From NCBI RefSeq assembly GCF_019048845.1, contig NZ_CP077426.1, forward strand, positions 1,163,501-1,227,500: DNA of 64,000 bases, given 5' to 3'. Below, piece after piece: positions 18,829 through 27,319 of this stretch. Source of the stretch: Vibrio mimicus (lineage in GTDB: Bacteria > Pseudomonadota > Gammaproteobacteria > Enterobacterales > Vibrionaceae). The notes beneath the pieces are model-generated. The model was not told where the DNA came from and searched no databases. It worked only from the letters and a program-made list of their open reading frames with translations. A program made the translations under genes and the position numbers. Every line of letters begins with the position of its first letter. The stretch's first letter is position 1.

Positions 18829-19583
18829 TGTCATTTACCGTTGTGATCCCTGCGCGTTACCAATCGACGCGTTTACCGGGTAAGCCTCTGGCGGACATCG
18901 GTGGTAAACCCATGATCCAATGGGTGTATGAACAGGCTATGCAGGCGGGTGCTGACCGCGTGATCATTGCAACCGATGATGAGCGTGTAGAGCAAGCGGT
19001 TCAAGCCTTTGGGGGTGTGGTGTGTATGACATCGCCTAACCATCAATCCGGCACAGAACGTTTGGCTGAAGTGGTGGAGAAAATGGCTATTCCGGCCGAT
19101 CACATCGTGGTGAATGTGCAAGGCGACGAGCCGTTGATTCCACCTGCAATTATTCGCCAAGTCGCGGATAACTTAGCCGCATGCAGTGCGCCGATGGCGA
19201 CCTTGGCGGTGGAAATTGAAGATGAAGCGGAAGTGTTTAACCCGAATGCGGTGAAAGTGATCACCGATAAAAACGGTTATGCACTGTACTTCAGCCGCGC
19301 CACGATTCCTTGGGATCGGGATAATTTCGCCAAGGCAGACAAATCCATCACTCAGCCGCTACTGCGTCATATCGGCATTTATGCCTATCGTGCAGGGTTC
19401 ATCAACACCTATCTGCATTGGCAGCCAAGCCCGCTTGAAAAGATTGAATGCTTAGAGCAGCTTCGTGTGTTGTGGCATGGTGAAAAAATTCATGTTGCGG
19501 TTGCGTTAGAAGCACCGCCAGCTGGGGTGGACACGCCAGATGATTTGGAAGTGGTGAGAAAGTTCGTCGCTCAACAACACTAA
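18828..19583 (+). CDS. kdsB: CMP-Kdo synthetase KdsB
   Basis: 3-deoxy-manno-octulosonate cytidylyltransferase, which activates Kdo with CTP for addition to lipid IVA. The 251 residues open with the nucleotidyltransferase motif [18 protein letters not shown], followed by VQGDEPLI with the metal-binding Asp, and later [11 protein letters not shown] and GIYAYR. It is the last gene of the comEC-msbA-lpxK-ycaR-kdsB run. Its stop codon lies in the left arm of the terminator. Confidence 0.97.
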
Positions 19584-19615
19584 ACAATAAAGCTCCCAAC
19601 GGGAGCTTTATTGTT
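19583..19615 (+). terminator. Bidirectional terminator after kdsB
   Basis: A perfect 15-bp stem (19583-19597 with 19601-19615) closes a 3-base loop, GC-rich at the top and AT-rich at the base. It begins on the last base of the kdsB stop and lies 26 bases from the end of the convergent carbonic anhydrase-like gene. Confidence 0.85.
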
Positions 19616-19640
19616 GAATACAGTATGGCGATGTCTGCTT

Positions 19641-20465
19641 TTATTGATGCCCTACAGATAAAAGTTCAGGATTGATCACCAAGTTTCGTACCCCGTGTGC
19701 GTGATTTTCTTTGAAATCATTGCCTTCAAGCCATTTAGCCACGGATGCAATACTCACTTTGGCGACATTAGGACGTACACTCCATGTTACTTGCAGTGGA
19801 GATCCTTGCTCGTTGTAACTGGGGCCCGTTGTCGAACCTGCGTATTGAATAGGCGTACCCGTGTCATTTGGAATGTTCAAGGCTTGATAATAGCCATTGC
19901 GTTGGCCATAGTCGGTGAGCACAGCAAAATCCAAAGCTTCATCATCATTAACCAGCACATAAACTTGCGCTTCAACTCTCAGTTGAGGGTTCTGTATTGA
20001 TTCAGAAAGGCAAGCACCTAACGTGGCTCCCGGCTTAACATTGGCGCTGCTATACACATAATGCACTTCGATGGTGTCTCCAGACTGAAGTTCTTTATGC
20101 TTGAAAGGTTGTAATTCTTCTTTCGTTAACTGGCCGTTGTACTGGTAACCCGTGTTATACCCTTTGCCATCACCATTGCCTGCAAATTGAGTAAACTCCC
20201 CACCTTTGTGTTCTGCGTTTTTGTGAAAATGGATATTGCACAGATTCATTTGTTCAAAGCCTGGTGCAATACCAAACGAACGGTCATTGTGTCCATCCAA
20301 GTTATCAATATCACGCGGTGATTGAGGGCCAAATCCTTTTTCTTTTGTATTCTCTGCGAGGTTTGCTCTTTGTTTGGCAATGACTTCATCACTGACAACG
20401 CCATCGGCTGCAAATGCCGTTGAGCTCACAAGTAACATGGTCATCACACACAACTTACTTTTCAT
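19641..20465 (-). CDS. Delta-class (CA_like) carbonic anhydrase, periplasmic
   Basis: A 274-residue exported protein with a signal peptide ending TAFA. The mature part has CNIHFHKNAEHKGGEF, a histidine cluster resembling the zinc site of the CA_like/delta carbonic anhydrase family (PF10563), and two further segments (VHYVYSSANV; QVTWSVRPNVAKV) in the beta-core. The Cys beside the His cluster and the Cys in GACLSES could form a disulfide. If correct it interconverts CO2 and bicarbonate in the periplasm. AAGGA precedes the ATG. It stands alone and is convergent with kdsB. The family call is by motif memory; enzymatic activity is inferred. Confidence 0.68.
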   Translation of the reverse strand: MKSKLCVMTMLLVSSTAFAADGVVSDEVIAKQRANLAENTKEKGFGPQSPRDIDNLDGHNDRSFGIAPGFEQMNLCNIHFHKNAEHKGGEFTQFAGNGDGKGYNTGYQYNGQLTKEELQPFKHKELQSGDTIEVHYVYSSANVKPGATLGACLSESIQNPQLRVEAQVYVLVNDDEALDFAVLTDYGQRNGYYQALNIPNDTGTPIQYAGSTTGPSYNEQGSPLQVTWSVRPNVAKVSIASVAKWLEGNDFKENHAHGVRNLVINPELLSVGHQ

Positions 20466-20631
20466 GAAGCGGTTCCTTTTTCGTGGCTTTTAGTCGCCGT
20501 GAGTATACTGAACCTTGAGTTGAAGAGTTTTATCAATTATGTATCCATTGGTTACGAATTTGATAAAAGAAAACAAGCTGAGAATAATGCAATGGTGTTG
20601 ACTGTGCTTGATGAATAGGTCTCCAGCAAAT

Positions 20632-21864
20632 TCAATTGCTTGAAGCGATGGCCCATATCCGTGTCATGACTTCTTCTTCACTGACCGTTGGGTTACGGAA
20701 AAAATGGAAAATTTCGTTGGTAATGGCTTGCTGAATCATGGGGTTAACCGCCATTGAATCGGTCATACTTGGCACGAGATTTCCCTCTTTGGCTGCATAC
20801 AAAAAGTCTTGGTGGGAACGCTGCTGGCATAGGTTGAATGTGTCTAAAGCAATATCCTGACGGACGGGAATCGACCCTTTATAGCGATTAAAGTTGGCTT
20901 GAAATTGCTTATCGGCGAGCAGTGTCGCCAGTTGATTGGCTTCTGTGTAGCTGAATTCTTTGCTCGCCATGAAAACGAAACTGTCCATGTTGTAGAGATA
21001 ACTGTTGTGTGAGCCAGGGGCTGGGGCACAAGAGATTGCCTCTGGCACTTTCACGTTTTTAGCTAAGAGCTCACCCAATATCCAATCACCACCGAGTTGG
21101 AACAAAGTCTCACCATTGATGAGCGCTTGTGTAGCGCTATCCCATCGCTCATCATTTTTGGTAAAGCTGACCCATTGGCTCACCTCGCGTAAGGCTTGCA
21201 AAGCTTGATGCATGGGCGGGGTTCGAATGTGTTCAGGACTCAGTTCGACCAATGACTGACGATAAAAATCAATGCCCCCATACGCGATAACAAAGCTTTC
21301 GAATATCTGCGCAATTTGCCAAGGTTGCTCCCCAATGGCTAAGGGCGATATGCCATGCTGATGAGCGGTTTTGAGTGCTTGTAAGAACTCGGTTTGGGTT
21401 GTAGGCAATTCCAGATTCAATTGCTTCAATAGCCAGTTGTTGACCCAAAGCATGTTCATTCGATGCAGAGTTAAAGGGAGCGCAACATAGCCTTGCCCGG
21501 TTTTGTTCACATGGATGACAGCAGGGTAAAGCTGTTCATCCCAGTGTTCTGCAGCAGCCACGGGGTTTAAGTTGTGGAGTATGCCAATCGCATCCCAGTC
21601 ACGAATGCTGGGGCCTTCAATTTGGGCGAGTTGTGGCGGATTGCCTGCCAAGGCTCGGGCTTGCAAGACCGTCATCGCATTGTCGCCACCACCCCCCAAA
21701 ATTGGGTTAATTTCGATTTCAATCTGATGCTGTTTTAAGTGTTGTTCCAGAGTTTGCAAGGCGCGTTGTTCGCCAGCGGAAGTCCACCAATGCATGATTT
21801 CGACAGCCGCGCTGAAAGACGAATAGCCAAAGAAGAATAAACATAACAATGTTCGCAGTAACAT
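20632..21864 (-). CDS. Periplasmic sugar-binding protein (family 1, glucose-type)
   Basis: A 410-residue extracellular solute-binding protein with a signal peptide (MLLRTLLCLFFFGYSSFSA) and no lipobox. The mature start IMHWWTSAGEQRALQ, then GGGGDNAMTVLQARALAGNPP, then GPSIRDWDAIG, and later PLTLHRMNMLWVN and FESFVIAYGGIDFY, follow the GtsA-type glucose/mannose-binding proteins of Pseudomonas-like ABC importers. No ABC permease or ATPase gene is nearby. Its ATG shares a base with the kinase stop (TAATG), making it the third gene of a regulator-kinase-binding protein operon. I infer it presents a bound sugar to the kinase rather than feeding an importer. Confidence 0.8.
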   Translation of the reverse strand: MLLRTLLCLFFFGYSSFSAAVEIMHWWTSAGEQRALQTLEQHLKQHQIEIEINPILGGGGDNAMTVLQARALAGNPPQLAQIEGPSIRDWDAIGILHNLNPVAAAEHWDEQLYPAVIHVNKTGQGYVALPLTLHRMNMLWVNNWLLKQLNLELPTTQTEFLQALKTAHQHGISPLAIGEQPWQIAQIFESFVIAYGGIDFYRQSLVELSPEHIRTPPMHQALQALREVSQWVSFTKNDERWDSATQALINGETLFQLGGDWILGELLAKNVKVPEAISCAPAPGSHNSYLYNMDSFVFMASKEFSYTEANQLATLLADKQFQANFNRYKGSIPVRQDIALDTFNLCQQRSHQDFLYAAKEGNLVPSMTDSMAVNPMIQQAITNEIFHFFRNPTVSEEEVMTRIWAIASSN

Positions 21865-23297
21865 TATGAATCCTTGGGGAGTGAAAGTGTGGCCATTAAT
21901 CCACCTTGAGCGGTTAAGCTGAGTTCAAGTTTTCCGCCATGCGCTTTAGCAATGCTTTGGGAGATGGTTAAGCCAAGCCCATTACCTTCGTGATGCAGTG
22001 CTTGTGGGGCTCGGTAGTAAGGCGCGCAGAGTTTTTCAATTAAGCTTGGATCAAGAGACTGACCTTCATCACTGATGGCGATGGTGATCGCGCTTTCAGC
22101 CTCGTGAAAATGAATATGGGCTCGATGGCCATATTTGATCGCATTGTCCACCAAGTTTTGGATGCAACGTTTCAACGCGAGAGGTTTGCCAATCAGCGGA
22201 CTAATGACTTGCCCCTGAATTGAGGTTTTATCGCTTTCGTAACGCATCGTGATATGTTCCACCAACAAGTTTAAGTCGATAGGCTCAATCTCTTCATGGA
22301 TGTCGGTTTCACGAATGCATTGCAAAGCACCTTTCACCATGAGTTCTAAGTCGTTGACGATTCGGGTAAAGCGTTCGCGTTCCCGATCATCATCCAGCAT
22401 TTCTGTGCGCAATTTGAGACAGGCAATGGGCGTTTTTAAGTCATGTGAAATGGCGCTGAACAGCATTTCTCGTTCTTTCATATGGCTATCAATACGCTGA
22501 TGCATTTTATTAAATGCGCGAATCGCGGCTTTGAGCTCGTTACTGCCTTGTTCTTTGACTAATGGCACTTTCAAGCGGCTGGACATCAGCGTTGCGGCTT
22601 TTGCCAAATGACGAATCGGTGTGATTTCACGTTGCATGATAATGCCCATGCATACCAGTAAAAGCAGGGCGGATAGCACCAAGGTAAACCACTCACGCCT
22701 TTCAAAATAGGTTGTTTCTAAATCCACATAAGGGGCGGGAAGAACGGCGGCAAGATAGAACCACTCACCGGCTGACACTTTGACTTGCAGAACCAGAATC
22801 GGGGGATTGAGTTCGCCATAACTGAGTGAATAGTGCGCCCATAACAAGGGAAGTTCATCAATAAGCAGCTCGTTATTAAACACTTTAAGTTGATCACGGC
22901 GAGTAAACTCAACAAGGATTTCCGGCTGCCCTTGTAGCTGCTGCTTCAGCACTTTCTGCACCTCCTCAATGACCAAGGTTTTACGCTGGCTTTCCGGAAG
23001 AGCATCAATGGCGATATCGTGATCATTCAGTGAAACGAAAAAGCGTGTTCCGCCCATATTGCGCAGTTGATTGAGCACTAAATGACGATACTGAGCGGGT
23101 AGGGTTTGGAAAAATGAGATGGTGGATGCAGCACTTAAGGCCAAACTGCGTACCGTGGTGACAAGTCCTTCAGTATCTCGTTTGTGGCTATGTTGATACC
23201 AAATGGCGCTCGCGAGCCATTGCGAGGCGACGACCACGATCACCAAAAACAGGCTGGTTCGTACTGCAAGCGAATTAAACCGCTGTTTAATGTTCAT
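21864..23297 (-). CDS. Sensor histidine kinase partner of the binding protein
   Basis: A 477-residue membrane kinase. TM1 lies at about residues 13-33, a periplasmic domain of about 160 residues follows, TM2 lies at about 200-220 and a HAMP-like linker comes next. The phosphoacceptor is His285 in ISHDLKTP. The ATPase domain has an N-box LVDNAIKYG, DEGQSLD and a G-box GNGLGLTIS. All catalytic motifs are intact. The large periplasmic domain could contact the neighbouring sugar-binding protein. It overlaps the regulator gene by 11 bases and the binding-protein gene by one, so all three should be made together. Confidence 0.9.
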   Translation of the reverse strand: MNIKQRFNSLAVRTSLFLVIVVVASQWLASAIWYQHSHKRDTEGLVTTVRSLALSAASTISFFQTLPAQYRHLVLNQLRNMGGTRFFVSLNDHDIAIDALPESQRKTLVIEEVQKVLKQQLQGQPEILVEFTRRDQLKVFNNELLIDELPLLWAHYSLSYGELNPPILVLQVKVSAGEWFYLAAVLPAPYVDLETTYFERREWFTLVLSALLLLVCMGIIMQREITPIRHLAKAATLMSSRLKVPLVKEQGSNELKAAIRAFNKMHQRIDSHMKEREMLFSAISHDLKTPIACLKLRTEMLDDDRERERFTRIVNDLELMVKGALQCIRETDIHEEIEPIDLNLLVEHITMRYESDKTSIQGQVISPLIGKPLALKRCIQNLVDNAIKYGHRAHIHFHEAESAITIAISDEGQSLDPSLIEKLCAPYYRAPQALHHEGNGLGLTISQSIAKAHGGKLELSLTAQGGLMATLSLPKDS

Positions 23298-23997
23298 AAC
23301 GAATGCCTGACGTGAGCATGTAACCTTTATTGCGCACGGTGAGAATTAAAGTGCGATCTTTATCTTCTAAGTGAGTGCGGAGTCGGCTGATTTGAACATC
23401 AATACCTCTTTCAAACGGATCCGCATCGCGTCCCCATATTTCTCGGGCAATGTCATCACGGGTCAGGATCTTCTCTGCGTGATTGATAAAAAGCCCGAGT
23501 AAGGATAAATCCGCACCGCTGAGCTGTTTTATCGCATGTGTTTCAAGGTGTTTTAGTTGTCGCGTAATCGTATCCAACTGCCAGCCCGCAAAGGTGACTT
23601 TTCTTGCCACAGAAAGGGAGTCTGAAAGTTGGCTGCGGCGAAGAATGGCTTTGATGCGAGCTAACAGCTCTCTTGGGCTGAAGGATTTAGTGATGTAATC
23701 ATCCGCTCCCAGTTCTAAACCCGTGACGCGATCGGTCTCTTCCGTCACGGCGGTTAACATGATGATGGGGACACTGGAGTGCTTGCGTAATTTTTGACAA
23801 AGCGTAAAGCCATCATCCCCCGGCATCATGATGTCTAGAATAATCAGGTCGGGATAATGATTTTCCAGAAGTTTCCACATTACCGCACCATTTTCGGCGC
23901 AAATAACCTCAAATCCTGCTTTACCCAGATAGTCTTTGATCGCCTCTCGAAGCTCCTGATTATCATCAACCACCAGGATCTGTTTGTTCTCCAACAT
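23287..23997 (-). CDS. OmpR/PhoB-family response regulator
   Basis: A 236-residue regulator with receiver residues Asp11/Asp12 and the phosphoacceptor Asp55 in LIILDIMMPG, the conserved Lys in DDYITKSFSPRELLARIK, and a C-terminal winged-helix DNA-binding domain (about 130-230, with EKILTRDDIAREIWGRD and DVQISRLRTHLE). It is the first gene of the three-gene leftward operon and faces the PtsG-like gene across a 231-base region. That region has four inverted heptamers which are its likely targets. Confidence 0.93.
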   Translation of the reverse strand: MLENKQILVVDDNQELREAIKDYLGKAGFEVICAENGAVMWKLLENHYPDLIILDIMMPGDDGFTLCQKLRKHSSVPIIMLTAVTEETDRVTGLELGADDYITKSFSPRELLARIKAILRRSQLSDSLSVARKVTFAGWQLDTITRQLKHLETHAIKQLSGADLSLLGLFINHAEKILTRDDIAREIWGRDADPFERGIDVQISRLRTHLEDKDRTLILTVRNKGYMLTSGIRYEH

Positions 23998-24057
23998 GCG
24001 GTTTTTCCTTCTTGTTCTCTGTGGTGAAAGCTCGGTTATTTCACAAGTAATTGACTG

Positions 24058-24112
24058 CTTACAAAAGACTTTTTTTGTAAGTGTTCGCTTACAAACTCGT
24101 TGCGCTTTGTAA
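24058..24112. promoter_or_regulatory. Cluster of four inverted heptamers, probable operator
   Basis: The heptamer TTACAAA or its complement TTTGTAA occurs four times in alternating orientation: CTTACAAA at 24058-24065, TTTGTAAG at 24074-24081, CTTACAAA at 24088-24095 and TTTGTAAC at 24106-24113. The middle pair makes a perfect 8-bp palindrome with a 6-base centre. The cluster lies 61 bases before the regulator start and about 115 before the EIICB start, so one set of sites could serve both divergent promoters. Confidence 0.6.
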
Positions 24113-24228
24113 CCTTCACTGGGTTGGGGATTGATAACATGATGGCGGATTTATTTTATCCATACACGTGAAAGCGATAGGCCATGCGGCCTATATCACC
24201 TGATAAAAACTCCAACAAGGAGGGAGAC

Positions 24229-25671
24229 ATGCTGAAAAATTTGTTTGGCCAGCTACAGATGATCGGACGGTCACTCATGCTGCCCGTTGCGGTATTACCC
24301 GTTGCCGGGTTGATGTTTGGTATAGGGAATGCGGGATTACCTTTCATCCCTGCTGAACTCAGTAAAGTCATGCTTGCTGCCGGTGAAGGCATATTTGGCA
24401 ACATGCAGTTGATGTTTGCAGTGGGGGTTGCGTTAGGCCTATCCAAAGGTAACGATGGCGCTGCTGGTTTAGCAGGACTGGTTGGCCTGATCATGATGAA
24501 TGCGGCACTCGGGATAGTCACTGGGTTGCGCGGGTTAGAAACCGATGCCACCATCATGGGCGTTGCAACACTGCAAACCGGTGTTTTTGGCGGCATTATT
24601 ATCGGTGCCGTCGCGGCGATGATGTACAACCGTTTCTATGCGATTCGATTACCCGAGTACTTAGGCTTCTTTGCGGGTAAACGCTTTGTACCGATTGTGA
24701 CAGGGTTAGTGTCAATCGTGATTGGTGCGGTATTGGCTTTCGCTTGGCCGCCTATCGGTAATCTCTTAGACATCTTCTCTCACTGGGCGGCTTATCAAAA
24801 CCCTGTGCTTGCTTGGGGTATCTATGGCGCGGGTGAGCGTTCTCTGCTGCCTGTCGGTTTACACCATATTTGGAATGCGCCGTTCTTCTTTGAAGTAGGT
24901 AGCTACACAGATCCACAAACGGGCAAAGTGTTCACGGGTGAGCTCACGCGCTTCTTCGCGGGAGATAAAACAGCAGGCTATCTGTCTGGTGGTTTTATGT
25001 ATTCAATGTGGGCGCTGCCTGCCGCGGCTCTCGCTATTTATCACTGTGCTAGCCCAGAGCGGAAAAAGATTGTTGGTGGCTTAATGATGTCTGCAGCGCT
25101 GACATCATGGCTGACAGGTATTACGGAGCCGATTGAATTCACCTTCTTGTTTGTTGCTCCTGTTTTGTACGTCATCCATATCTTCCTGACAGGTATTGCG
25201 TTTGCGATCACCGCGTTTTTAGAGATTAAACACAGTACCGACTTTGCTCACGGCGCTATCCAGTTCTTCTTGTATTATCCAATGTCGAGCAATGCGTGGA
25301 TGTTCTTTATCATCGGGCCGATTTGGGCGCTGCTTTACTATGGTCTGTTCCGCTTTCTGATTGTGAAGTTAAACCTGAAAACGCCGGGTCGAGAAACAGA
25401 GGTAACGACAGTCACTTTAGCGGGCAAACCGAATGAAATTGCGGTGGATGTGGTGGCAGCGCTCGGCGGTAAAAGTAACATCAAAACCGTAGACGCTTGT
25501 ATCACCCGACTTCGTGTTAGCGTGAGAGACATTAAACATGTCGATGTGGCTAAGCTGAAACAGCTCGGTGCGAGAGAAGTCATTGTGATTGGCGACAATT
25601 TACAAGCCATCTTTGGTACGCAATCCGACACGATAAAAAGTGAAATTCATGGCGTTCTTGCTTCAGCTTAG
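24229..25671 (+). CDS. PTS EIICB, glucose family (second PtsG-like permease)
   Basis: A phosphotransferase permease of 480 residues that imports and phosphorylates a hexose, most likely glucose. It reads colinearly with E. coli PtsG: LQMIGRSLMLPVAVLPVAGL at the N-terminus, LPEYLGFFAGKRFVPI, WAAYQNPV, GLHHIWN, the sugar-binding GITEPIEF motif, a linker at LKTPGRE, then the EIIB domain with the phosphorylated Cys424 in ACITRLRVSV. No EIIA is fused or adjacent, so it should use the cell's Crr. ATG 24229 is fixed by AAGGAGG at 24218-24224. It is divergent from the response-regulator operon and probably its target. An alternative substrate in the glucose/glucosamine/maltose group cannot be excluded. 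Confidence 0.9.
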   Translation: MLKNLFGQLQMIGRSLMLPVAVLPVAGLMFGIGNAGLPFIPAELSKVMLAAGEGIFGNMQLMFAVGVALGLSKGNDGAAGLAGLVGLIMMNAALGIVTGLRGLETDATIMGVATLQTGVFGGIIIGAVAAMMYNRFYAIRLPEYLGFFAGKRFVPIVTGLVSIVIGAVLAFAWPPIGNLLDIFSHWAAYQNPVLAWGIYGAGERSLLPVGLHHIWNAPFFFEVGSYTDPQTGKVFTGELTRFFAGDKTAGYLSGGFMYSMWALPAAALAIYHCASPERKKIVGGLMMSAALTSWLTGITEPIEFTFLFVAPVLYVIHIFLTGIAFAITAFLEIKHSTDFAHGAIQFFLYYPMSSNAWMFFIIGPIWALLYYGLFRFLIVKLNLKTPGRETEVTTVTLAGKPNEIAVDVVAALGGKSNIKTVDACITRLRVSVRDIKHVDVAKLKQLGAREVIVIGDNLQAIFGTQSDTIKSEIHGVLASA

Positions 25672-25698
25672 TAAGAAAGCGTAGTTCACTGAAAAGAA

Positions 25699-25732
25699 GA
25701 AAAAGCCCACAACGAACGAAGTTGTGGGCTTT
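25699..25732 (-). terminator. Terminator between the EIICB gene and spoVR
   Basis: A 12-bp stem, 25702-25713 with 25721-25732, carries a GCCCACAAC/GTTGTGGGC core. The A-run on its left gives a U-tract for leftward spoVR transcription. It may also stop the rightward EIICB transcript, though its right flank is poorer in T. Confidence 0.85.
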
Positions 25733-25768
25733 GGTTATGTTAGGAATGTTGTATTGCAGCCCCAGAGA

Positions 25769-27319
25769 TTAGATTCGACTTTCTAAGTCGTTCTTTTTAG
25801 GGCAGGTTGCGAGGATATCTCTTCTTCCTGTGTCTTTGACCTCCTCCAGTTTGACTTCAAAACCCCATAGACGGTGCAAGTGTTTCAGCACCTCCTCGTA
25901 GCTTGGATCTAACGGAATGCGATCGTGTGGAACGTACTGCAACGTCAATGAGCGATCGCCTCGAACATCGACGTTATACACTTGAATGTTGGGTTCAAGG
26001 TTACTGAGGTTGTATTGTGCCGCGAGTTTTTCGCGGATTTGTTGATAACCGAGGTCATCGTGAATAGCACTGATTTCGATGTGATTTTTTCTATCATCAT
26101 CGCAAATGGCAAACAGCTTAAAATCGCGAATGAGCTTGGGAGATAAGTACTGGCTGATAAAACTTTCATCTTTAAAGTTACGCATCGCAAAATGAAGGGC
26201 ATCCAACCAGTTAGATCCCGCTAACTCTGGAAACCACTCTTTATCTTCCTCAGTCGGTTCTTCACAGATCCGTTTAATATCACGGAACATGGCAAACCCA
26301 AGCGCATAAGGGTTGATGCCACTGAAATAACGGCTGTTGTAGGGCGGTTGCGCCACTACGCTGGTGTGGCTGTGCAGAAACTCCAGCATGAATTTGTCGC
26401 TGACTAACCCCTCATCATAAAGATGATTGAGAATGGTGTAGTGCCAGAAGGTTGCCCATCCTTCGTTCATGACTTGGGTCTGTTTCTGCGGATAAAAATA
26501 CTGGCTGATTTTACGTACGATGCGAACGATTTCGCGCTGCCAAGGTTCCAGCAAGGGAGCGTGTTTCTCAATAAAGTAGAGGATGTTCTCTTGCGGTTCG
26601 CTCGGGAAACGGCGATGTTTTTCCTGCTCAACCGCTTTTTTCGGCACAGTACGCCATAAGGCATTCACTTGTGATTGCAGATAAGCTTCGCGCTCTTCTT
26701 GGCGCGCTTTCTCTTCGGCAATTGAGATCTTTTCTGGCCGTTTATAACGGTCAACCCCGTAATTCATTAAGGCATGGCAGGAGTCGAGTAGCTTTTCCAC
26801 TTCGTTCACGCCAAATTTCTGCTCACATTCGGCAATGTAGTTTTTGGCAAACAACAGGTAATCGATGATCGAGCTGGCATCCGTCCAAGTTTGGAACAGA
26901 TAGTTGCCTTTGAAGAAGGAGTTGTGGCCGTAACACGCATGCGCCATCACGAGGGCTTGCATGGTTACGGTATTTTCTTCCATCAAATAGGCGATACAAG
27001 GATCGGAGTTAATGACGATCTCGTACGCTAACCCCATCTGGCCGTGTTTGTAGGTTTGCTCGGTTTGGATGAATTTTTTGCCAAATGACCAATGGTTGTA
27101 GTTGATGGGCATGCCGATGCTGGAATAGGCATCCATCATCTGCTCTGAGGTGATGATTTCAATCTGGTTTGGGTAAGTATCCAAACGATAAAACTCAGCG
27201 ACGCGGCGAATTTCTTGGTGATAGCGTTCAATCAGCTCAAATGTCCAATCTGGGCCATCGGGTAGTCGCTTGTTTTGGGCTGCTTTACGCTTGGGTGCGG
27301 CTTTGGCTTTGGTTGTCAT
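25769..27319 (-). CDS. spoVR: SpoVR-family protein (YcgB)
   Basis: A 516-residue cytosolic protein of the SpoVR family, matching E. coli YcgB in length and in motifs such as PNQIEIITSEQMMDAYSSIGMP, YEIVINSDPC and MAHACYGHNSFFKGN. The biochemical role is unknown. It forms a conserved trio with yeaG and yeaH, expressed in stationary phase and starvation in enterobacteria. It begins 12 bases after the yeaH stop and ends at a terminator. Confidence 0.95.
   Translation of the reverse strand: MTTKAKAAPKRKAAQNKRLPDGPDWTFELIERYHQEIRRVAEFYRLDTYPNQIEIITSEQMMDAYSSIGMPINYNHWSFGKKFIQTEQTYKHGQMGLAYEIVINSDPCIAYLMEENTVTMQALVMAHACYGHNSFFKGNYLFQTWTDASSIIDYLLFAKNYIAECEQKFGVNEVEKLLDSCHALMNYGVDRYKRPEKISIAEEKARQEEREAYLQSQVNALWRTVPKKAVEQEKHRRFPSEPQENILYFIEKHAPLLEPWQREIVRIVRKISQYFYPQKQTQVMNEGWATFWHYTILNHLYDEGLVSDKFMLEFLHSHTSVVAQPPYNSRYFSGINPYALGFAMFRDIKRICEEPTEEDKEWFPELAGSNWLDALHFAMRNFKDESFISQYLSPKLIRDFKLFAICDDDRKNHIEISAIHDDLGYQQIREKLAAQYNLSNLEPNIQVYNVDVRGDRSLTLQYVPHDRIPLDPSYEEVLKHLHRLWGFEVKLEEVKDTGRRDILATCPKKNDLESRI

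What the first reader, a model, noticed from the sequence alone, without database searches (positions are those of the whole stretch)
20632..25671. Candidate glucose-sensing three-component system paired with a second PtsG-like permease
Seen: a response regulator, histidine kinase and periplasmic sugar-binding protein are translationally overlapped in one operon, and an EIICB of the PtsG type lies divergently. There is no ABC permease or ATPase for the binding protein. Known: ABC-type binding proteins can act as sensory co-receptors (ChvE with VirA in Agrobacterium, chitin-oligosaccharide-binding protein with ChiS in Vibrio), and the binding protein resembles GtsA-type glucose binders. Inference: the binding protein loaded with glucose (or a related hexose) signals through the kinase to switch the PTS gene, giving external-glucose control on top of Mlc/CRP-type control. 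From unverified memory, the V. cholerae reference has the carbonic anhydrase gene next to spoVR, so this block may be variable between strains.
Basis: partly seen in the sequence, partly recalled or inferred. Interest (0 to 1): 0.78.

Follow-up and report, generated by a model that had tools for sequence, protein, structure and literature searches.

The report
Sugar sensor rewired to PTS permease
Vibrio bacteria appear to have kept the sensing half of a known bacterial glucose-uptake system, lost its original transporter, and wired the sensor to a different sugar pump, with matching changes in the sugar pockets of sensor and pump.

Summary
Confirmed: an overlapping regulator-kinase-binding-protein operon lies divergent to a second PtsG-like EIICB, with no ABC permease. 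The kinase is sister to GtrS and the binding protein to GltB/GtsA of Pseudomonas, where glucose-loaded GltB is published to activate GtrS-GltR. Here gtsBCD is missing and the likely target is a PTS permease. (1) Of 227 Vibrio genomes, EIICB orthologues (>=84%) occur in 26, all among the 46 with this binding-protein clade; the other 20 all carry another permease lineage, EIIb. (2) The promoter has four TTACAAA boxes, the core of the published P. aeruginosa GltR motif; all 25 distinct EIICB promoters have at least two. At EIIb, 34/34 promoters in genomes with the system have a box (14 of them unlinked), against 2/8 without it, both single. (3) The binding pocket differs from glucose binders at two of twelve contacts (K92E, H379D), the permease at two of ten (K257S, S338A), so the ligand may be altered near C2; glucosamine is my preferred alternative. 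Ligand, kinase activation and DNA binding are untested. Verdict: a new variant of the GltB-GtrS-GltR three-component system, coupled to PTS instead of ABC uptake.

The parts
20632..21864 (-). periplasmic sugar-binding protein (GltB/GtsA relative) without its ABC transporter; E83 and D369 stand where ppGBP has K92 and H379
21864..23297 (-). GtrS-type sensor histidine kinase (phospho-acceptor H285)
23287..23997 (-). GltR-type OmpR-family response regulator
24229..25671 (+). second PtsG-like PTS permease EIICB (longest ORF from 24184); S259 and A340 stand where E. coli IICB-Glc has K257 and S338
24059..24112 (.). four-box array TTACAAA (24059-24065 +), TTTGTAA (24074-24080), TTACAAA (24089-24095), TTTGTAA (24106-24112); starts 15, 15 and 17 nt apart; predicted regulator binding sites between the divergent genes
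25702..25732 (.). terminator-like hairpin between EIICB and spoVR (pattern match only)
19557..25736 (.). about 6.2 kb absent between kdsB and spoVR in three cholerae-clade genomes; holds the four genes plus the carbonic anhydrase gene

Best explanation
A three-component sugar switch derived from, or sister to, the GltB-GtrS-GltR system, in which the binding protein has become a dedicated sensor. Inferred steps: the sugar-loaded binding protein docks on the periplasmic domain of the GtrS-type kinase; the kinase phosphorylates the OmpR-type regulator; the regulator binds the TTACAAA box array between the divergent operons and switches on the EIICB gene, probably also its own operon; EIICB then imports the sensed sugar by the PTS. 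Shown here: gene identities, lack of an adjacent ABC transporter, presence pattern across genomes, conserved boxes that follow the regulator and not the location of the permease gene, paired changes in the two sugar pockets. Ligand not settled: a glucose-like hexose, quite possibly altered near C2 (glucosamine favoured), or glucose with tuned affinity.
For: Homology: kinase sensor region (residues 1-225) matches a Pseudomonas putida kinase at 2.1e-50 and a Marinobacter protein named GtrS at 3.9e-54; binding protein matches P. aeruginosa GltB (P0213, 39%) and ppGBP; model of the binding protein TM 0.93 to galactose-bound ppGBP. Mechanism published for the Pseudomonas relatives (PMC7927077). Presence: EIICB orthologues (>=84%) in 26 of 227 Vibrio genomes, all within the 46 with the binding-protein clade; 20 of 20 others of the 46 and 11 of 11 class-B genomes carry EIIb; chance overlap 1e-43 if genomes were independent, which they are not. 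Boxes: 25 of 25 distinct EIICB promoters have >=2 boxes, 24 have >=3, against 59 of 875 other upstream regions with >=1 and 6 with >=2; box columns 99.8% conserved against 65% around them; EIIb promoters 34/34 in genomes with the system, 14/14 unlinked, against 2/8 without it (Fisher 0.0004 for 14/14 vs 2/8). In this genome the only exact hits of the two paired-box patterns are here. Regulator promoters of unlinked class-A loci also carry boxes.
Against: No binding, phosphorylation or expression was measured. Only one of the four window boxes (GTTACAAA) fits the P. aeruginosa ChIP motif GTNACAAA exactly; the other three begin with C. Another paper (PMC4081096, passages) gives a different GltR site, calls GltR a repressor, and reports direct binding of 2-ketogluconate by GtrS, so sign and signal are disputed even in Pseudomonas. 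EIIb promoters in several genomes with the system have a single box (10 of 34), and outgroup L117 has none. 35 of 46 class-A genomes have further binding-protein hits, many with canonical gtsABCD, so cross-use of a transporter is not excluded there. Genomes are related, so counts are not independent. Two EIICB copies carry an internal TAG (G033, G189).
Confidence: 0.8

Rival explanations
1. Same switch, but the ligand is still D-glucose, as in Pseudomonas; the two pocket changes tune affinity for a sensor role.
For: Ten of twelve pocket residues are unchanged. In T. thermophilus glucose-binding protein, mutations at H66 and H348 are described as affinity modulation (PMC12609159, passages); H66 aligns with K92. 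EIICB scores above the glucose-PTS model cut-off. Some related loci lie near glucose-6-phosphate or glyceraldehyde-phosphate dehydrogenase genes.
Against: The permease also lost two glucose contacts, K257 and S338, which PMC11393339 links to OH-2/OH-3 and OH-2; 69 of the 120 best-listed relatives keep both and 51 have neither.
Confidence: 0.35
2. The kinase senses a small molecule directly (for example 2-ketogluconate or 6-phosphogluconate), and the binding protein is accessory.
For: PMC4081096 (passages) reports 2-ketogluconate binding to the GtrS sensor domain.
Against: PMC7927077 found GltB essential and those metabolites of little effect; the binding-protein gene stays in the operon although the transporter is gone.
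Confidence: 0.1
3. The regulator represses EIICB and the sugar relieves repression.
For: PMC4081096 describes GltR as a repressor; box positions alone do not tell the sign.
Against: PMC7927077 finds activation of the transport operon.
Confidence: 0.2
4. The binding protein serves an ABC transporter encoded elsewhere, and its place beside the kinase is a relic.
For: Canonical gtsABCD coexists in many Vibrio genomes.
Against: This genome and ten others with one binding-protein hit have no close GtsB (no full-length hit above 27%), while three of three controls have 96-100% (GtsB only was tested).
Confidence: 0.05

Closest known systems
GltB-GtrS-GltR of Pseudomonas aeruginosa (glucose-binding protein, kinase, regulator; PMC7927077)
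   Same: Homologous binding protein, kinase sensor domain and OmpR-type regulator; operator core ACAAA/TTACAAA shared; binding protein next to kinase
   Different: gtsBCD absent; PTS permease as likely target; two of twelve sugar contacts changed; separate kinase clade
Canonical gltR-gtrS-gtsABCD loci of Vibrio (class C here)
   Same: Same gene order for regulator, kinase, binding protein
   Different: They keep the ABC genes and the K/H pocket: 16 of 17 loci K92 and H379, one V/H
ChvE/VirA, chitin-oligosaccharide-binding protein/ChiS, XylFII-LytS (recalled, not tested, apart from a reference title for the last seen)
   Same: Periplasmic binding protein acts as co-receptor of a sensor kinase
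   Different: Not examined here; kinase families and targets differ as recalled
PtsG (E. coli IICB-Glc)
   Same: EIICB aligns over residues 1-474 with eight of ten glucose contacts
   Different: K257S and S338A; divergent from a dedicated three-component system

Membership tests
GltB-GtrS-GltR glucose system | Kinase sensor domain homologous to GtrS | tested here: met
   (residues 1-225 only); sister clade in the tree
GltB-GtrS-GltR glucose system | Binding protein homologous to GltB/GtsA | tested here: met
GltB-GtrS-GltR glucose system | Twelve glucose contacts of ppGBP conserved | tested here: not met
   ten of twelve; K92E and H379D
GltB-GtrS-GltR glucose system | Target operon gtsBCD (gltFGK) present with the binding protein | tested here: not met
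GltB-GtrS-GltR glucose system | Regulator site GTNACAAA at the target promoter | tested here: inconclusive
   TTACAAA core four times, one exact GTTACAAA; binding not measured
GltB-GtrS-GltR glucose system | Binding protein docks on kinase and activates it | not testable with these tools
   no complex prediction or assay was run
PtsG glucose permease | Scores over glucose-PTS family cut-off | tested here: inconclusive
   TIGR02002 748 (cut-off 592) met, PRK11089 639 (cut-off 647) just missed
PtsG glucose permease | Ten glucose contacts of IICB-Glc conserved | tested here: not met
   eight of ten; K257S, S338A

The most novel reading that the evidence does not exclude
A glucosamine-type (C2-altered hexose) sensing three-component system: loss of the ABC genes was followed by a coordinated change of specificity, two acidic residues replacing K92 and H379 in the sensor, and loss of K257 and S338 in the paired permease, with two unrelated permease lineages serving as interchangeable outputs of one sensor. 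In some class-B loci a secreted PIG-L-type de-N-acetylase carries the same boxes and may belong to the regulon.
Probability: 0.35. Interest if true: 0.75.

Novelty: new variant of a known kind. Interest (0 to 1): 0.62.

Why it matters
If true, it is a natural case in which a transport-linked sensor outlived its transporter and was rewired to another transport class, with the operator boxes recording the rewiring at linked and unlinked permease genes. It separates the sensing role of a binding protein from its transport role, makes the disputed GtrS signal testable in a background without gtsBCD, and gives a paired set of sensor and permease pocket changes from which sugar specificity can be tested directly. 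It would also add external-sugar control to PTS genes, usually discussed in terms of internal regulators.

Tried and rejected
ABC transporter elsewhere: tested with GtsB only and judged unlikely. Pfam/NCBIfam alone do not identify the system. The kinase model (pLDDT 83, pTM 0.51) matched PDB entries over the kinase core in the rows shown; it gave no relative for the sensor domain. Genome-wide regulon search: with up to two mismatches the paired-box patterns hit no more often than reversed controls (30 vs 30, 21 vs 34), so no further targets are claimed. Window frequency of TTACAAA alone is weak (19 against 13.3 expected, 5 of 100 shuffles as high); the clustering and conservation carry the argument. 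Promoter scan found no sigma-70-like site in the intergenic region. Genomes G002 and G208 first looked like exceptions (boxes without binding protein); they carry regulator, kinase and a frameshifted binding-protein gene. The permease evidence is not uniform: EIIb has Y or M at 257 also in the eight control genomes without the system, so that change is not tied to the sensor. Outside the main clade the pocket pair is looser: S/D in L117, Q/D in L118, K/D in L122, E/H in L131, E/N in L063. Neighbours pointing to glucose metabolism speak against the amino-sugar reading. Seven of 100 fetched loci (L058, L109, L119, L120, L121, L129, L130) had no kinase of 400 aa or more by ORF calling and were left out of the kinase tree; the tree is a quick LG+G4 search with long branches. 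L034 (broken EIICB) and L156 (short upstream) were left out of the promoter count (38 of 40 usable, 25 distinct). Papers: no report of this system in Vibrio appeared in searches (open-access library; listings only, apart from passages read as cited); that is not proof of absence.

Full report
What is there. A regulator, kinase and binding protein are read leftwards with 11-nt and 1-nt overlaps; EIICB is read rightwards, probably from ATG 24229. Pfam and NCBIfam place them as an OmpR-type regulator, a HAMP/HisKA kinase, an SBP_bac_1 protein and a glucose-family EIICB. The window lies in a 4.35-Mb, three-contig Vibrio genome of the V. cholerae/V. mimicus group; its species was not determined.

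Nearest relatives. The binding protein is closest in PDB to P. putida glucose-binding protein (3.8e-82), and its AlphaFold2 model (pLDDT 93) superposes on galactose-bound ppGBP with TM 0.93. The kinase sensor region alone finds a P. putida kinase (2.1e-50) and a Marinobacter protein named GtrS (3.9e-54). In P. aeruginosa, GltB (the GtsA homologue) binds glucose (KD 1.37 uM) and the GtrS sensor domain (KD 0.1 uM), is essential for glucose activation of GtrS-GltR, and needs its glucose pocket for it (PMC7927077; abstract, results parts 1 and 2 of 3, and discussion read). PMC4081096 (passages) instead describes GltR as a repressor and 2-ketogluconate as a GtrS ligand.

Comparative anatomy. In 227 Vibrio genomes the binding protein finds a match in 166. 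From these I fetched 80 loci, and 20 more from other genera and families of the order. Most canonical loci read regulator-kinase-GtsA-GtsB-GtsC-GtsD. In the window's clade the ABC genes are missing. 46 genomes have a binding protein of the window clade (43% identity or more), 11 a more distant 'class B' (36-39%), and two further class-B genomes (G002, G208) have a frameshifted copy. Named carriers of the window-type locus include V. mimicus, V. diabolicus, V. nereis, V. hepatarius, V. tubiashii, V. tapetis and Photobacterium frigidiphilum.

Permease partners. EIICB orthologues (84% or more) occur in 26 of 227 genomes, all 26 among the 46; below that the next listed hit is at 56% or less. The remaining 20 of the 46, and all 11 class-B genomes, carry EIIb, a separate permease lineage (38-44% to EIICB); EIIb occurs in 42 of 227, and only G190 has both. 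So 57 of 57 genomes have one of two permeases that together occur in 67 of 227 (hypergeometric 1e-43, ignoring relatedness). In the kinase tree (100 rows, quick method) the PTS-linked kinases and the GtrS/ABC-linked kinases fall on opposite sides with 99% SH-aLRT support, and the EIICB/EIIb label changes at least three times on starred branches.

Operator boxes. The 231-nt intergenic region has four TTACAAA/TTTGTAA boxes with starts 15, 15 and 17 nt apart. P. aeruginosa GltR ChIP-seq gave GTNACAAA (PMC7927077); one of the four boxes fits it exactly, three start with C. Of 40 EIICB promoters fetched 38 were usable and 25 distinct: 25 have two or more boxes and 24 three or more, with spacings 15/17 in 12, 15/15/17 in 10 and others in 3. 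Of 875 other upstream regions from the same loci, 59 have at least one box and 6 at least two; box columns are 99.8% conserved, the rest of the aligned stretch 65%. At EIIb the boxes follow the regulator: 34 of 34 promoters in genomes with the system have at least one (24 at least two), including 14 of 14 that lie elsewhere in the genome, against 2 of 8, both single, in genomes without it. Those eight genomes have either no related binding protein (three) or canonical K/H ones (five). In the window's genome the only exact hits to either paired-box pattern are here. EIId, a PtsG-type permease beside GtrS-type kinases of the ABC clade (class D), lacks the array: 2 of 9 promoters have one distal box. 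Outgroup loci L114-L116 and L118 have a box pair, L112 and L113 one box, L117 none.

Sugar pockets. Of the twelve glucose contacts of ppGBP listed in PMC7927077, the window protein keeps ten; K92 is E83 and H379 is D369. Of 55 fetched class-A and class-B loci, 54 are E/D and one E/N; of 17 GtsBCD-linked Vibrio loci, 16 are K/H and one V/H. In the T. thermophilus protein the aligned H66, and H348, are affinity-tuning positions (PMC12609159, passages); H348 lines up with H379 only if a short gap is allowed. In the permease, E. coli IICB-Glc contacts glucose through E202, R203, H211, H212, N215, K257, T297, E298, F337 and, in simulation, S338 (PMC11393339, passages). EIICB keeps eight and has S259 and A340 for K257 and S338. 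Among the 120 best-listed relatives of 7998, 48 plus the window have S/A, two T/A, one A/A, and 69 keep K/S. The genome's own PtsG and all nine EIId proteins keep K/S; NagE has M at 257. K257 is reported to contact OH-2/OH-3 and S338 OH-2, so both proteins changed where a sugar altered near C2 would matter, and the sensor gained two acids. Glucosamine would fit; affinity tuning for glucose, mannose or another hexose is not excluded. Three class-B loci encode a secreted PIG-L-type de-N-acetylase (two of three over the Pfam cut-off) whose upstream regions all carry TTACAAA repeats 11 nt apart; in L085 that region is shared with the regulator gene. Against an amino sugar: other related loci sit near glucose-6-phosphate dehydrogenase, 6-phosphogluconate dehydrogenase, glyceraldehyde-phosphate dehydrogenase and a GH13/CBM48 protein.

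Transporter loss. A Vibrio GtsB finds no full-length hit above 27% identity in 11 of 11 class-A genomes that have a single binding-protein hit, but 96-100% in 3 of 3 controls. The other 35 class-A genomes have further binding-protein hits, so a shared transporter is not excluded there.

Mobility. In three cholerae-clade genomes kdsB and spoVR are neighbours and the 6.2 kb (window 19557-25736) is absent; V. mimicus CAIM 602 has the four-gene block without the carbonic anhydrase gene.

Conclusion. It works like the GltB-GtrS-GltR system and is sister to it, but fails two of its defining features (gtsBCD, full glucose pocket), so I file it as a PTS-coupled variant and not as a member. Confidence 0.8 for the sensor-to-PTS wiring, about 0.35 each for glucosamine-type ligand and for glucose.

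Noticed in passing
window 19641-20465: Delta-class carbonic anhydrase gene (PF10563) inside the insertion; absent there in V. mimicus CAIM 602 and in three other cholerae-clade genomes.
   Followed up: partly
window 20631-26000: The block is 95-98% identical per kb to V. mimicus, while other window kilobases range from 73 to 96%; possible recent exchange between species.
   Followed up: partly
L100, L101, L110, L158-L160: Independent PTS pairing (class D): GtrS-type kinase of the ABC clade, binding protein with K92 and A or Q at 379, divergent PtsG-type EIId; L100 lies beside lacZ and galactose genes; L159 has two EIId copies.
   Followed up: partly
L088, L089, L090, L105, L109: GtsA-type binding protein without adjacent GtsBCD (regulator and kinase also found in the first four), some beside a clpX/lon-like neighbourhood; further possible transporter losses.
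   Followed up: no
L076, L077, L085: Secreted PIG-L-type de-N-acetylase with TTACAAA repeats 11 nt apart upstream.
   Followed up: partly
G033, G189; L024/L058; L146, L152: Broken members: EIICB with internal TAG, kinase in pieces, binding protein frameshifted.
   Followed up: no
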